This document shows positions 6,451-14,114 of a stretch of DNA of 34,613 bases, piece by piece (the stretch's first letter is position 1; every line of letters starts with the position of its first letter). The position numbers and the translations under genes were made by a program. The DNA is from Nitrosovibrio sp. Nv4 (lineage in GTDB: Bacteria; Pseudomonadota; Alphaproteobacteria; Acetobacterales; Acetobacteraceae): positions 1-34,613 of the forward strand of contig CALQHT020000030.1 in assembly GCA_943330455.2 (NCBI GenBank), given 5' to 3'. The notes beneath the pieces are model-generated. The model made no database searches. It worked only from the letters and a program-made list of their open reading frames with translations, and was not told the DNA's origin.

Positions 6451-7029
6451 TTATCTGGCCTCGGCACCGTCCGGGTCTGACGGAAAGGCCAGGCCCTCAT
6501 ACAATTCCCCCAACGGCACCGCGGCGGCGATCTCCGGCAGGGGGAGGTCCACGTCGCCGATCAGGATGTGCCCGACCCAATCGTCCCCATCGCGGGAGAA
6601 CACCGTCGCGGCCTGGAGGGTTTGTTCCAGGATCACGTAGCGTTGGATGGATGGGGTGTCGCGGTATTCGCGGTTCTTTTCGATCCGGTCCGTGTCCGAC
6701 GTGCTGGCACTGAGAATTTCGAACACGATGACGGGTTCGGTGACGACCGTCGCGTCAACCGGGACGGGCGAGCACACGACGAACGCATCCGGGTAGCGAA
6801 TCCGCCCGGCCACCTGGATTTTCAGTTCACTCCCCACCGCTCGGCAGGGTCCGCCGCGGAGGCGATCCCGCAACGCGCCGATGAGGTTGACCTGGATGAA
6901 GGCGTGCGCGGCCGTGCCACCGGTCATGGCGACTGGTTCGAAACCGTCGAATTCATATTTCATGGGCTGGCGGTTTTCCCAGTCCAGGAATTCCGCCAGG
7001 GTCATGGTGTATTGCAGGGCCGCGCTCAT
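6451..7029 (-). CDS. Uma2 family endonuclease-like protein (copy 1)
   Basis: This 192-residue protein of the Uma2/DUF820 family has a PD-(D/E)XK nuclease-like fold common in cyanobacteria and some Alphaproteobacteria. Visible landmarks are MTLAEFLDWE near the N-terminus, YEFDG, then RIRYPDAFV with Asp81 and VIVFEILS with Glu104, the expected active-site acid positions. The end is ELYEGLAFPSDPD. The ATG at 7029 gives the same length (192) as the paralogue at 9934-10512, which supports this start over the longer frame. The function is unknown. It follows the Avd-like gene on the same strand, in the place where a DGR would normally have its reverse transcriptase. Confidence 0.85.
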   Translation of the reverse strand: MSAALQYTMTLAEFLDWENRQPMKYEFDGFEPVAMTGGTAAHAFIQVNLIGALRDRLRGGPCRAVGSELKIQVAGRIRYPDAFVVCSPVPVDATVVTEPVIVFEILSASTSDTDRIEKNREYRDTPSIQRYVILEQTLQAATVFSRDGDDWVGHILIGDVDLPLPEIAAAVPLGELYEGLAFPSDPDGAEAR

Positions 7030-7269
7030 GGGCGGGAGTATAGCACTGGCCGAGCGTCCGGGGATAACTGATTTGCAGTGCGGGTCGGACCTGCTTATCG
7101 GTCCTGAAGGCGGACCGGCGCCCGCCGCCGCAAGGGCCAAAGCGGACGCCGCCGTCAGGGGGTTGCCTTCAGGGGGTTGCCTTCAGGGCACCCCACTCAT
7201 CATGGGCGCCCCCGAACGCGGTATTGGCAAACCTGGGGTCGTCGTCCGGCCAGGTGCGGCATGCATCTG
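7030..7269. other. gap between Avd-like gene and Uma2, with a 14-bp tandem repeat
   Basis: Two exact copies of AGGGGGTTGCCTTC lie at 7157-7170 and 7171-7184, plus four bases of a third. No ORF with family resemblance is visible. In a complete DGR the template repeat would be expected near here, but I see no adenine-rich copy of the variable region. Confidence 0.5.
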
Positions 7270-7575
7270 TTATTTCCGCGCATCGATCAGGCGCAATTCG
7301 AACGACAGTCGCATGAAGTAACGCAGACGCTCCAGGCCCAGATTCGCTTCGACGAGCTTTACATCGCGCGCCTTCGTGAACGTGGCACCAATCAGCAATT
7401 CCAGCACGTCCAGCGCGGTGCTTTCGATCCGGTCGCCCAGCACGAATTTCTGCTTGCGCGGATATTTCTCCACGGTGGGAATCAGCCACAAAAGAACCTG
7501 GTACATCGCTTCCAGCGCTGGTCCGGTCGTTCGGGCATTGTTGGCGGTTTCGATCATGCGGCCATCCTGGCGCAT
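7270..7575 (-). CDS. Avd-like four-helix-bundle protein (DGR accessory)
   Basis: At up to 101 residues, it is all helix with the family hallmarks LLWLIPTVEKYPRKQKFVLGDRI, ALDVLELLIGA and LVEANLGLERLRYFMRLSFEL. This is the four-helix-bundle family (Avd/bAvd, S23-like) whose best-known members assemble as a basic barrel that binds the DGR reverse transcriptase and template RNA. The alternative start at M7 (7557) gives 95 residues. It ends LIDARK, apparently ten or more residues short of family members, so it may be truncated. It lies 126 bp downstream of the variable-region remnant, the classical target-avd order, but no reverse transcriptase follows. Free-standing family members exist outside DGRs, so context carries much of the inference. 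Confidence 0.7.
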   Translation of the reverse strand: MRQDGRMIETANNARTTGPALEAMYQVLLWLIPTVEKYPRKQKFVLGDRIESTALDVLELLIGATFTKARDVKLVEANLGLERLRYFMRLSFELRLIDARK

Positions 7576-7652
7576 AGGCCCCCGAGTCGGGAAACCTTAT
7601 TCTCTATCCACTCCAATCGTTGCAAATACGGTGTTTAATCCGTGAAAATTCC

Positions 7653-7671
7653 CCAGGGGCTACGCCCCTGG
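7653..7671. repeat. 8-bp GC-rich hairpin between the target tail and the Avd-like gene
   Basis: CCAGGGGC and its complement flank a 3-base loop. DGR target genes often have a hairpin just past the variable region. However, very similar palindromes occur at 22212-22466, so this may equally be a dispersed repeat. Confidence 0.6.
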
Positions 7672-7700
7672 ACCCCTTGCAGGACGTAAAGAGATAAAGA

Positions 7701-7898
7701 TCAAAGAGGTGAAAGCGTTCTGGCCACCCGGAAACCGATGCCGCCGCCCCGGCTGCCGGGGGAGTCCCCGAGGCGGGAGCCGGCGCGGACGCCCCACGGA
7801 ATGCCGTACCAGGAGCCGCCGCGCAGGACACACTGACAACCCAGGGTTGTATTTCGTGGGTTCTCATTTACGATCCGCGACTCGCTATAGGTCGGAAA
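7701..7898 (-). pseudogene. read-through tail of the FGE-fold gene with DGR-type variable region
   Basis: Directly after the in-frame TAG (7899-7901) the same frame stays open for 65 more codons to a TGA at 7701-7703. It resumes family sequence: VLRGGSW (from about 7823), then a glycine- and serine-rich stretch, then IGFRVARTL. RGGSW...GFRVA is the C-terminal signature of formylglycine-generating-enzyme-fold proteins, and in DGR targets the stretch between these motifs is the diversified one. The 23 codons at 7740-7808 between W and I contain only four adenines, as expected if template adenines were substituted. The tail cannot be made without stop read-through, so the gene is called broken here. 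Confidence 0.75.
7740..7808 (-). other. candidate DGR variable region core
   Basis: Twenty-three codons lie between RGGSW and IGFRVA. Residues such as YGIPWG, GSRLGD and SRGGG occupy positions that are Asn (AAC/AAT) in typical template-repeat translations of this family, and nearly all can be reached by changing adenines only. The assignment rests on family knowledge; no template repeat is visible for comparison. Confidence 0.55.
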
Positions 7899-9800
7899 CT
7901 AACAATCCGCGACCCATTGCCATGCATTGCCGAGCATGTCTTTCAGTTCGAAACCGTTGGCGGGGAAAGTCCCAACTGGCGAGGTGCCCTTGTAGCCGTC
8001 ATCGCAGGCGAAATAAGTTCCAAGATCCTTCCTCGCCGCATCGAGGCTACCGGCCAGAGATCCATCAGAAACATTGGCATACCGGCAGGCATTGTCCGAA
8101 TCCCAATACCGCGCGGGCGACGACGTCTTCATCACCCGCTCCCCCCTCGCCGCATACTCCCACTCCACCTCGCTCGGCAGCCGATATGGCCCAGTGGCAT
8201 TGCCCTTGTTAAGCCATCTCAGATAGGCCATCGCGTCGTCATAACTGGTACACACGATCGGATGCTGGTCCTTGTTGCCGACCGCCTTGTTCAAAGCATC
8301 GTCGAACGAGGCGAGGCATTTATCGATGGCATCGCGCGAGGCCTTGGGGAACGGCGAAGTCTTGTTGTCCATGAACACCGCAAACTGCGCCCGGGTGACA
8401 TGCGTGCGACCGAGATAGAATGGCTGCTGCACCGGCACCGCGCGCCGCTCACCGCCGGTTCGCGCCCAATCGGGAACCTTTTCCCTGTCGTTCTCCGCCT
8501 TGGTGACACCCAGGTTGACCATGCCAGCCGGGATCAGCACGAGTTCGAATTCGGGGCAGGTGTCGCAACCTTTAGCCCGGATGGCAGTGAACGGAGCAGG
8601 TTCCGGTTTGGCCGCCTGCGGTGGGTCCGGCGGTTTTGCCTGCGGCTTGGGGTCCGCGGCAGGCTGAGTGGTCAGCGCCGGAGGCTGGGGCGTGGCATCC
8701 GGTGATGGTGTCGGCGAAGGTTTCACCTGTGCGTCGGGTGCGGCAGCGGTTGCCGGCGCCGGAGGGTTCGCGGCTGGCTTCGGACCGGGGGAAGGAGCGG
8801 GCGTAGATGAAGGGGCCGCGGCAGGTGACGTCACCATCGCGACCTGGCCTGCTGGCTGATGTCCCGGGCCGATAAGGCCAGTCACCCAGACGCCCAAGAC
8901 AGCCAACACCGCCACCCCCGCCAGCCCCAGCATGGCCCGGCCCGGGAACGCTCGGCCCGTCGAGGTCCGTCCCGCTGTCGGTGTCGCAGCGAGAAAAGCA
9001 AGGTCGCCGACAAGGTCGGAAGTCAGCGATGTACCGCCGGATACCCGACCGCCACCCGCGGACCCCACCCCACCGAGCGAGGCGCCGCCGCCGAGCGAAG
9101 ACTGTGGCGATGATGCGGGATTGGCGGGGGCGACGGGTGCGGGGGGCGGCGCGGCCCCGCCCGCGACGGTACCGGAAAGCTCGGCGCCCGCAGGTGGGGG
9201 AGGGCCGATGAACGTGGTGCCCGCAGCGCCGGGGATCGCCACGGGTCCAGCGTTCCGCGACGACCGCGCCAGCCACGGTTTCCGCAGCGCGGCGTCGATG
9301 TCCTTCGCCAACGCGCCGATCCGCAGTGCGACATCCTCGCGTTCCTGGTCCCGGTTGCGCAGGTCGTGGAACTTGGTGCCCTGGCGGGACCGCAGCAGTT
9401 TCAGCACCTCCGGGTCCAGGCAGTCCGCCGATTGGATCGGCTGGACGTAGGATGTATCAATGTAATGGAACGGGAAAATCAGGTCGTTGCGGCCAAGTTC
9501 GATCTCGCGCTGGCGGAACAGCATCACTTCCTTGCAGCACATCTCGCTGTGCAGGAAGCCCGGGGTGACGATTGGGTTGAAGAACAAAGAACGGTCGATC
9601 GCCTGGTGGATCTGTTCCAGCCAGTCGGTGCCGCGCGGGATGAATTCCTCATCCTGCAGGATATCCACAATCGGACGGCCGACCAGAAGTTGCAGTTGCC
9701 GTTTCAGTCGCAGGCGGATGCGGGTCAGTTCACGATCGGAATTCTCGTCGTCGGAGCGGGTATAGCTCCAGAACCCGACCGGCCCTTCAGGTTCCGCCAC
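7899..9800 (-). CDS. TIR domain - proline-rich linker - membrane segment - FGE/C-type-lectin-fold protein, ending at an in-frame TAG
   Basis: The 633-residue product has four parts. Residues 7-165 form a TIR-like domain: FWSYTRSDDEN at the first strand, DEEFIPRGTDW, and SEMCCKEVMLF with Glu91 in the position of the NADase glutamate. Residues 200-240 are Pro/Ala/Gly linker. Residues 289-311 are one hydrophobic membrane helix. Residues 315-403 are a Pro/Ala/Lys spacer. From 416 an FGE-sulfatase (SUMF1) domain begins with LVLIPAGMVNLG, with YRLPSEVEWEYAARG and DMLGNAWQWVADC at the end. True FGE continues for about 60 residues past ADC; here a TAG intervenes. The layout suggests a cytoplasmic TIR effector tethered to an external ligand-binding lectin fold. 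No catalytic CxPSR motif of real FGE is seen. Confidence 0.8.
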   Translation of the reverse strand: MAEPEGPVGFWSYTRSDDENSDRELTRIRLRLKRQLQLLVGRPIVDILQDEEFIPRGTDWLEQIHQAIDRSLFFNPIVTPGFLHSEMCCKEVMLFRQREIELGRNDLIFPFHYIDTSYVQPIQSADCLDPEVLKLLRSRQGTKFHDLRNRDQEREDVALRIGALAKDIDAALRKPWLARSSRNAGPVAIPGAAGTTFIGPPPPAGAELSGTVAGGAAPPPAPVAPANPASSPQSSLGGGASLGGVGSAGGGRVSGGTSLTSDLVGDLAFLAATPTAGRTSTGRAFPGRAMLGLAGVAVLAVLGVWVTGLIGPGHQPAGQVAMVTSPAAAPSSTPAPSPGPKPAANPPAPATAAAPDAQVKPSPTPSPDATPQPPALTTQPAADPKPQAKPPDPPQAAKPEPAPFTAIRAKGCDTCPEFELVLIPAGMVNLGVTKAENDREKVPDWARTGGERRAVPVQQPFYLGRTHVTRAQFAVFMDNKTSPFPKASRDAIDKCLASFDDALNKAVGNKDQHPIVCTSYDDAMAYLRWLNKGNATGPYRLPSEVEWEYAARGERVMKTSSPARYWDSDNACRYANVSDGSLAGSLDAARKDLGTYFACDDGYKGTSPVGTFPANGFELKDMLGNAWQWVADC

Positions 9801-9933: not shown

Positions 9934-10512
9934 CTACGCACCGGTCTCCGCATCAGGGTCCGACGGGAACGCAATCCCCTCATACAATTCCGTCAGAGAA
10001 ATAACGACGCCGATTTCCGGCATCGACAGGTCCGCGTCACCGATCAGCACATCCGCCACCCAATCGTTCCCAGATCGAGCATAGACCGTCGCCGCCTGTC
10101 GCGTCTGTTCCAGGATCACGTAGCGCTGGATCGACGGGGTCAGCCGATACTCCCGGTACTTCCCGATCCGGTCGGTATAGGATGTGCTCGGACTCAGGAT
10201 CTCGAACACCACGACGGGATCGGTCACGACCTGTGTTCCCCGTAGTGGCGTCGAGCACAATACGAAGGCGTCCGGATAGCGAATGGACCCTGAGACCAGA
10301 ACTTTCAGTCGACTGCCCACCACGCGGCACCGGCCGCCGCGAAGCCTGTTCCCCAAAGCAGCGATCAGATTGACCTGAATGAACGCATGATCCGTCGTCC
10401 CGCCGGCCCTGGCGACTGGCCGGACTCCGTCGAACTCATACGGGAGTTCCTGGCGTTCTTCCCACGCCAGGAACTCAGCAAGCGTCATGGGTTTGAGCAG
10501 GTCGGAACTCAT
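9934..10512 (-). CDS. Uma2 family endonuclease-like protein (copy 2)
   Basis: At 192 residues it has the same length as the copy at 6451-7029 and aligns end to end without gaps, roughly two-thirds identical by eye: MTLAEFLAWE, YEFDG, SIRYPDAFV (Asp81), VVFEILSPSTS (Glu104), ELYEGIAFPSDPD. The ATG at 10512 is chosen because it matches the paralogue; the open frame continues upstream but has no family sequence. It lies just upstream of the TIR gene on the same strand, so the two Uma2 copies form a direct repeat around the DGR relic. Its molecular role is unknown. Confidence 0.87.
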   Translation of the reverse strand: MSSDLLKPMTLAEFLAWEERQELPYEFDGVRPVARAGGTTDHAFIQVNLIAALGNRLRGGRCRVVGSRLKVLVSGSIRYPDAFVLCSTPLRGTQVVTDPVVVFEILSPSTSYTDRIGKYREYRLTPSIQRYVILEQTRQAATVYARSGNDWVADVLIGDADLSMPEIGVVISLTELYEGIAFPSDPDAETGA

Positions 10513-13529: not shown

Positions 13530-14114
13530 ATGGCTGCAGTCCGCAAATACGCCTTCGCCCGGATGACCGTCGATGAGTTCCTGTCCTGGGACCCCAAGGA
13601 CCGGTCTGGCCGGTTATGGCAACTGATCGATGGGGAGCCGGTGGCGATGGCGCCAGGCTCCGATATGCATGGGTCCATTCAGAGCGAAATCAGCGGCCTG
13701 CTGCGCGATCACCTGCTGCGAAAGGGTAGCCCATGCCGTGTCGTAACCACCCCCGGAATCGTCCCCCGCATTGGCGCCAACCGCAATTATCGTATTCCTG
13801 ACCTGGGTGTCACCTGCGCGCCTCCGTCGCGGGAACTCATGATACCCGACCCCGTCCTGCTGATCGAAATCCTCTCCCCGTCGAACGAGGCCGAAACCCG
13901 CGCCAATATCTGGGCCTACACGACGATCCCCTCGGTCCGGGAAATCCTCGCGGTCCGCTCCACCCGCATGGAAGCCGAACTGCTGCGCCGCCGCGACGAC
14001 GGCTCCTGGCCGGAGGAACCCGAGCTGATCGGTCCCGGCGCGAACCTGTCCCTGGTCAGCGTCGACTTCGTCACGCCTCTCGCCGCCTTCTATCGGACGA
14101 CCGAACTGGGCTGA
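13530..14114 (+). CDS. Uma2 family endonuclease-like protein (copy 3)
   Basis: The 194-residue Uma2/DUF820 protein has MTVDEFLSWD, GEPVAMAPGSDMHGSIQSEI, RIPDLGVTC with Asp91 and LLIEILSPSNEAET with Glu113. It is clearly more distant from the two minus-strand copies than they are from each other, so it represents another subfamily and not a recent duplicate. It sits alone on the plus strand between the aldolase and the reductase, 49 bp after the former. Its role is unknown. Confidence 0.85.
   Translation: MAAVRKYAFARMTVDEFLSWDPKDRSGRLWQLIDGEPVAMAPGSDMHGSIQSEISGLLRDHLLRKGSPCRVVTTPGIVPRIGANRNYRIPDLGVTCAPPSRELMIPDPVLLIEILSPSNEAETRANIWAYTTIPSVREILAVRSTRMEAELLRRRDDGSWPEEPELIGPGANLSLVSVDFVTPLAAFYRTTELG

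What the first reader, a model, noticed from the sequence alone, without database searches (positions are those of the whole stretch)
7270..9800. Relic of a diversity-generating retroelement with a TIR-FGE target and no reverse transcriptase
The minus strand reads target (TIR, membrane helix, FGE fold), variable-region remnant, hairpin, then an Avd-like four-helix-bundle gene. This is the standard order of the first half of a DGR. The expected template repeat and reverse transcriptase are missing; a Uma2 gene and a short tandem repeat occupy their place. Either the cassette has decayed or the target relies on a reverse transcriptase encoded elsewhere. TIR-linked lectin-fold DGR targets suggest a signalling or defence receptor with a hypervariable sensor.
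Basis: partly seen in the sequence, partly recalled or inferred. Interest (0 to 1): 0.75.

Follow-up and report, generated by a model that had tools for sequence, protein, structure and literature searches.

The report
Broken remnant of a hypermutation cassette
A bacterium carries the wreck of a gene-diversifying retroelement that probably once varied the tip of a membrane-anchored TIR receptor; its reverse transcriptase and template appear to have been cut out by a deletion whose scar is still readable.

Summary
The target (7899-9800, minus) is TIR, membrane helix, FGE fold; an in-frame amber at 7899-7901 cuts off its end with the variable region (VR, 7716-7823). The avd gene (7270-7575) has lost its fourth helix. 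RT and template repeat (TR) are gone: about 1.26-1.30 kb in four relatives is reduced to some nine bases. A conserved segment that follows the TR in related DGRs survives at 7108-7229 (33.4 bits, E 1.3e-8), so the cassette was once complete. No DGR-type RT and no TR were found in the genome (98.6% complete), so trans-diversification is unlikely. Five of 33 genus genomes hold this RT family; G267 has a TIR-FGE target with avd, RT and TR in cis, and G249 has two remote TIR-FGE genes whose VRs differ from its TR almost only at adenines. G272 holds a second relic. Degenerate DGR loci, trans-diversification and TIR-bearing targets are published (PMC10907252): a new member of a known kind. Most novel by-product: RT-less cassettes in relatives that keep their own TR and the conserved tail.

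The parts
7899..9800 (-). target gene remnant: TIR, membrane helix, proline-rich linker, N-terminal part of the FGE fold; ends at an in-frame amber
   Evidence: Pfam TIR_2 and FGE-sulfatase; stop at codon 634 of a 699-codon frame
9426..9662 (-). TIR domain (Pfam TIR_2 match, aa 47-125)
   Evidence: a stretch SEMCCKE is present; its role as the NADase glutamate motif is recalled, not tested
8868..8924 (-). predicted membrane helix
   Evidence: Kyte-Doolittle maximum 2.26 over 19 residues
7902..8546 (-). FGE-sulfatase fold, profile positions 4-192 of 255
7899..7901 (-). premature in-frame stop (TAG)
   Evidence: homologues continue through this point
7704..7898 (-). 65 stranded in-frame codons completing the FGE fold, with the variable region
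   Evidence: sequence; 64 of them searched: FGE profile 202-255
7716..7823 (-). variable region (VR) remnant
   Evidence: aligned with five relatives' TRs; against the G267 TR 21 of 28 adenines and 11 of 89 other bases differ
7653..7676 (-). GC-rich hairpin after the VR; member of a genome-wide dispersed family
   Evidence: 39 further listed places in the genome
7270..7575 (-). avd remnant, 101 codons, fourth helix missing
   Evidence: bAvd E 8.2e-10; 68% and 64% identical to avd of G156 and G212; alignment, model of the G156 homologue
7264..7272 (-). deletion junction: end of avd, RT and TR missing (1263-1297 bases in four relatives)
   Evidence: placed here if tail homology begins at 7263
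7108..7229 (-). conserved DGR tail that follows the TR in relatives (homology may begin at 7263)
   Evidence: nhmmer 28.0 bits E 5.2e-7 (model of 5 DGRs), 33.4 bits E 1.3e-8 (model of 23 tails); window in neither model
7161..7188 (-). 14-base tandem duplication inside the tail
   Evidence: sequence; one copy in the relative G274
6451..7140 (-). neighbour, not part: Uma2 gene (start probably near 7031)
   Evidence: PF05685 E 7.6e-24

Best explanation
This is a dead DGR. [quoted passage not shown] The RT with Avd copied the TR RNA with errors at adenines and wrote the copies into the VR (inferred from relatives and from known DGRs). A deletion running from helix 4 of avd to just past the TR removed the RT, the TR and the end of avd (supported by homology on both sides of the junction), and a nonsense mutation removed the end of the sensor (seen in this assembly). 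What remains can no longer diversify itself. The order of the two lesions is unknown. Inferred receptor logic: cytoplasmic TIR effector, membrane helix, outward hypervariable sensor; probably a defence or signalling receptor.
For: Homology to target, avd and tail of related DGRs in the same order. Relatives' TR/VR differences lie at adenines: G156 15 of 24 A, 1 of 88 other; G212 14/29, 2/90; G267 15/28, 1/87; G249 14/31, 1/89; G275 11/28, 3/92. Missing 1.26-1.30 kb. No DGR RT in the own genome: RVT_1 gives a group II intron RT (C314), a retron-like RT (C99) and a group II fragment in two pieces (C95) (classes judged by eye and from memory); a relative's RT finds only C314 and C95 at 27-30% identity; the same RVT_1 search finds the DGR RTs of G156 and G212. 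No TR: own VR DNA and a relative's TR find no second copy. Avd identity: Foldseek top hit 4dwl, Avd of the Bordetella phage DGR, E 1.9e-4, TM 0.74/0.87; sequence profile 4dwl E 0.002, 8ub7 Avd E 0.012.
Against: The genome is in 470 contigs and 1.4% incomplete, so an RT or TR elsewhere is not wholly excluded. The amber could be an assembly or consensus error. The VR alone is not diagnostic: ordinary FGE genes of the same genome also differ from relatives' TRs mostly at adenines (C282 against G267 TR: 25 of 27 A, 25 of 83 other), and a TIR-FGE gene without avd beside it, G266:C6, is about as close to the TRs at other bases (13 of 82 to 23 of 92) as the window (11 of 89 to 17 of 89). The first ~40 positions of the tail are not recovered by the profile, and a 75-column core model alone was not significant (9.8 bits, E 0.25). 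The Avd fold is shared with proteins that are not in DGRs (2gsc, 2rld).
Confidence: 0.9

Rival explanations
1. The target is a remote variable protein, still diversified in trans by an RT and TR encoded elsewhere.
For: Trans service probably occurs in the genus: the G249 TR at C16 matches VRs of TIR-FGE genes at C28 (14 of 31 A, 1 of 86 other differ) and C29 (17/31, 1/89). Published for Thiohalocapsa PB-PSB1 (PMC10907252, passages).
Against: No DGR RT and no TR found in the own genome, amber before the VR, avd truncated.
Confidence: 0.04
2. Ordinary TIR-FGE gene that was never a DGR target, next to an unrelated four-helix gene.
For: Matches to the target (TIR or FGE part) occur in 20 of 33 genus genomes; six fetched TIR-FGE genes (L060-L065, own C282 among them) have no avd or RT match beside them. 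The VR by itself does not separate the window from such genes.
Against: avd orthologue at the DGR position and the DGR tail.
Confidence: 0.03
3. The cassette never had RT/TR at this site: only target, avd and tail were duplicated or transferred here.
For: The G156 cassette lies at another locus (near gyrase-, coaD- and murA-like genes by eye), so cassettes move; relative G274 has the acyl-CoA dehydrogenase (98.7% aa) and Uma2 (88%) without target or avd between.
Against: A transfer would have to join avd, cut at helix 4, to a segment that lies just beyond the TR; an internal deletion does this in one step. G274 has a weak tail match at the homologous spot (10.1 bits E 0.17; 9.2 bits E 0.32), which hints at loss there too but is not significant.
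Confidence: 0.06

Closest known systems
Degenerate DGR loci of Thiohalocapsa PB-PSB1 (PMC10907252; passages and sections 5 and 7 read)
   Same: DGR loci lacking or pseudogenising RT or TR, C-type-lectin/FGE targets of conflict systems, a TIR domain among targets, trans-diversification by another locus
   Different: There RT genes at two loci were replaced by MITE-like arrays and each class has a complete locus in the same genome; here a deletion joins avd to the post-TR tail and no complete DGR was found in the genome
Target-gene remnants in Treponema denticola strains without RT/TR (PMC4891356; passages read)
   Same: VR-bearing target left after loss of the DGR core in some lineages
   Different: Many targets are lipoproteins; no avd or tail scar in the passages read
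Cyanobacterial DGR variable proteins with TIR-like domains and degraded DGRs (PMC7517822; passages read)
   Same: TIR-like domain joined to a C-type lectin VR, remote targets, degraded cassettes
   Different: Different host group; the degraded cassette named in the passages keeps only the RT
Bordetella phage BPP-1 DGR
   Same: Avd fold (4dwl), adenine-directed TR to VR transfer; a structured spacer follows TR and recruits RT-Avd (PMC12875486, passages read), to which the tail here may correspond
   Different: Order avd-TR-spacer-RT there, avd-RT-TR-tail in this family

Membership tests
Diversity-generating retroelement (functional) | DGR-type reverse transcriptase in the locus or genome | tested here: not met
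   positive control
Diversity-generating retroelement (functional) | template repeat differing from the VR mainly at adenines | tested here: not met
   no second copy found in own genome:
Diversity-generating retroelement (functional) | intact target with C-type lectin/FGE fold ending in the VR | tested here: not met
   amber before the VR
Relic of a DGR | target and VR homologous to related DGRs | tested here: met
Relic of a DGR | avd homologue at the DGR position | tested here: met
Relic of a DGR | trace of the lost RT/TR part | tested here: met
   tail at 7108-7229, deletion size
Relic of a DGR | past adenine-directed mutagenesis of this VR | tested here: inconclusive
   biased to adenines against relatives' TRs, but so are ordinary FGE genes; own TR not found
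Active trans target | VR variable among strains | not testable with these tools
   one genome per species held
TIR immune receptor | NADase or signalling activity | not testable with these tools
   domain match only

The most novel reading that the evidence does not exclude
In this Acetobacteraceae-type genus DGRs exist as autonomous cassettes and as non-autonomous satellites. The satellites keep VR, their own TR and the conserved post-TR tail but lack avd and RT, and would be served in trans by the RT-Avd of the genome, the tail acting as the recognition element. The window would then be a dead end product of such core loss, in which the TR went too.
Probability: 0.45. Interest if true: 0.65.

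Novelty: new member of a known kind. Interest (0 to 1): 0.45.

Why it matters
It shows, with a readable scar, how a hypermutating immune-type receptor loses its diversifier, and it yields a marker (the post-TR tail) by which lost or RT-less DGRs of this lineage can be found without an RT. Satellites with their own TR would make it testable whether one RT can serve several templates in a genome.

Tried and rejected
Rejected: current trans-diversification of the window target (no RT or TR found, broken target); a DGR role for the RTs of C314, C99 and C95 (group II intron, retron-like, group II fragment by inspection); Uma2 as replacement of RT/TR (it lies beyond the tail); the hairpin as proof of a DGR (dispersed repeat); the VR's adenine bias as proof (controls show it too; G266:C6 is as close as the window at other bases). 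TR/VR counts depend on the stretch taken: with 30 and 10 flanking bases G156 gave 15 of 27 A and 12 of 107 other, with the repeat alone 15 of 24 and 1 of 88. Led nowhere: the search for related loci with the window Avd in genome contigs, 54 pattern matches, none confirmed; paper search for DGR and Acetobacteraceae, 0 papers. A 75-column tail model gave the window only 9.8 bits, E 0.25 in 414 kb; the longer models gave the significant result. Pairwise tail alignments scored 39 and 47 against control maxima of 36 and 40 (293 and 289 random stretches). The G274 tail match is weak.

Full report
Observation. On the minus strand the window reads a 633-codon target (7899-9800; TIR_2 and FGE-sulfatase), an in-frame TAG, 65 further open codons that complete the FGE profile, a GC-rich hairpin, and a 101-codon avd (7270-7575). 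The target has one strong hydrophobic stretch at 8868-8924 between TIR and FGE, so a cytoplasmic TIR and an outward sensor are likely (inference).

Relatives. The window's Avd finds 3 of 249 sampled family genomes including its own. A relative's RT finds 3 of 397 sampled family genomes at E <= 1e-40 and 8 of 33 genus genomes at E <= 1e-20; five of the eight (G156, the query's own genome, G267, G249, G275, G273) match at 67-100% identity, the other three at 29-35%. With G212 of another genus of the family this gives six loci. In G156, G212, G267 and G249 the parts lie on one contig, in G275 on two, and G273 holds only an RT fragment with an internal TGA near a contig end. The order is target-VR-avd-RT-TR where it can be seen. 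TR/VR differences fall on adenines: 15 of 24 A and 1 of 88 other (G156), 14/29 and 2/90 (G212), 15/28 and 1/87 (G267), 14/31 and 1/89 (G249), 11/28 and 3/92 (G275). G267 is the closest intact counterpart of the window: TIR, membrane helix and complete FGE fold, with avd, RT and TR in cis. The G212 target has no TIR match, and the G156 target frame is interrupted in its assembly (by eye).

The scar. The TRs of the five (G156, G212, G267, G249, G275) are followed by a conserved segment (CATGCC...ATGATGA and a GC-rich stretch). RNAalifold gives it 37 pairs, 11 of them kept through changes on both sides in some sequence, but the total covariation term is not favourable (+0.56). A profile built from those five, without the window, finds the window at 7113-7229 with 28.0 bits, E 5.2e-7 in 414 kb, the only significant hit other than the five DGRs and duplicate loci of them. 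In 80 named RT loci (the best 80 kept of 535) the profile hits 24 at E <= 0.01, four of these being training DGRs, each on the strand of the RT and at or just beyond its 3' end. A second model from 23 tails (5 DGRs, 4 RT-less cassettes, 14 of the named loci), again without the window, gives the window 33.4 bits, E 1.3e-8 in 968 kb of 155 records; the other 10 records at E <= 0.01 are all named RT loci. The end of avd homology and the tail start lie 1263, 1288, 1273 and 1297 bases apart in G156, G212, G267 and G249, and nine bases apart in the window if the tail begins at 7263. So RT and TR were very probably there and were deleted together with helix 4 of avd. A 75-column model of the tail core was not significant (9.8 bits, E 0.25).

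No machinery elsewhere. RVT_1 in the own genome gives C314, C99 and two pieces at C95; by inspection (recalled features) these are group II intron, retron-like and group II fragment. The relative's DGR RT finds only C314 and C95 weakly. The same RVT_1 search detects the DGR RTs of G156 and G212. Own VR DNA finds itself, short stretches of two other FGE genes, the dispersed hairpin and one chance match; a relative's TR finds the window VR (E 6.5e-9), next best E 0.14.

The VR. Against five TRs the window VR differs at 18 of 24 to 25 of 31 adenines and at 11 of 89 to 17 of 89 other bases. Controls without avd or RT beside them: own C282 against the G267 TR 25 of 27 and 25 of 83; own C344, G270:C141 and G276:C64 24-29 of 83-92 at other bases; but G266:C6, a TIR-FGE gene in a genome without this RT, only 13 of 82 to 23 of 92. 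So the VR alone is not diagnostic (G266:C6 may itself be a former target); avd and tail carry the case.

Site. In G274 (84% complete), whose acyl-CoA dehydrogenase beside the locus is 98.7% identical, that gene is followed after about 1 kb by the Uma2 orthologue (88%), with no target or avd between; a weak, non-significant tail match lies in front of that Uma2. In G275 a Uma2 gene (46%) follows the TR, and in G268 a TIR-FGE gene follows the acyl-CoA dehydrogenase. Of 16 acyl-CoA dehydrogenase loci fetched from the 32 matching genomes, the other 14 (L081-L094) gave no TIR, FGE, avd, RT or Uma2 match, some reaching less than 1 kb downstream.

The wider pattern. G272 (99% complete; no RT at E <= 1e-20) has a second relic: complete FGE target with VR, hairpin, and avd homology that stops at residue 85 of the G156 protein, with no RT match or tail in the 5 kb fetched. 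G249's TR matches VRs of TIR-FGE genes at C28 and C29 (14 of 31 A, 1 of 86 other; 17/31, 1/89), a case for trans-diversification. Four loci (G156:C98, G254:C205, G275:C7, G267:C41) have a TR and tail (tail scores 88.7, 69.6, 67.9, 47.4) without an avd or RT match in the fetched DNA (1.7 to 11 kb). In three the VR is seen 322, 362 and 351 bases upstream, with differences at 12 of 24 A and 2 of 95 other, 10/20 and 8/103, 14/26 and 3/95; in the fourth the contig begins just before the TR and no VR is seen. At G156:C98 the TR is preceded by a stretch similar to the end of the RT region, and this TR differs from that of G156's RT-bearing DGR without adenine bias (7 of 24 A, 23 of 91 other). These look like non-autonomous DGRs; that they are served in trans is inferred. 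G156, G275 and G267 hold an RT; none was found in G254, which is 80% complete.

Known ground. Degenerate DGR loci, RT loss, trans service and a TIR/CHAT target are described for Thiohalocapsa PB-PSB1 (PMC10907252: passages, sections 5 and 7); core loss in T. denticola (PMC4891356: passages); TIR-like domains and degraded cassettes in cyanobacteria (PMC7517822: passages). In BPP-1 a structured spacer beyond the TR recruits RT-Avd (PMC12875486: passages). In the listings and in the passages read (also PMC8144416, PMC3521204) I saw no description of RT-less cassettes with their own TR; the full texts were not read, and the degenerate loci of PMC10907252 may include some.

Verdict. A real, well-supported DGR relic: new member of a known kind. 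Interest is moderate, raised by the scar, the tail marker and the satellites.

Noticed in passing
L112:1193-1787 (G156:C98), L104 (G254:C205), L107 (G275:C7), L114 (G267:C41): Cassettes without avd or RT that have their own TR and the conserved tail; in three the VR lies 322-362 bases upstream with adenine-biased differences. Possible non-autonomous DGRs.
   Followed up: partly
L063 (G249:C28) and L111:14-1642 (G249:C29): Two TIR-FGE genes on other contigs than the RT whose VRs match the TR at G249:C16 at all but one aligned non-adenine base each: likely trans targets.
   Followed up: partly
L119:1428-3083 (G272:C70): Second DGR relic: complete pentapeptide-FGE target with VR, hairpin, truncated avd; no RT found in that genome.
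   Followed up: partly
L064 (G266:C6): TIR-FGE gene with no avd or RT beside it whose VR is close to relatives' TRs at non-adenine bases (13 of 82 differ from the G212 TR); perhaps an orphaned former target.
   Followed up: no
L059:379-765 (G273:C252): DGR RT fragment (residues 3-131) with an internal TGA near a contig end; decaying or misassembled.
   Followed up: no
window:7653-7676: GC-rich palindrome of a dispersed family, 39 further listed places in the genome, several of them within about 100 bases of contig ends.
   Followed up: no
L002:450-2331 (own genome C99): RT of 315 aa beside a 314-aa gene that looks by eye like a retron effector (recalled; not searched).
   Followed up: no
window:6451-7140, 9934-10512, 13530-14114: Three Uma2-like genes; the first two (68% identical) flank the DGR relic on both sides.
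   Followed up: partly
L121-L200: Relatives of this RT are found in named genomes of many phyla; of the 80 loci kept, 78 have an Avd match, 67 an FGE match and 1 a match to the window's TIR.
   Followed up: partly
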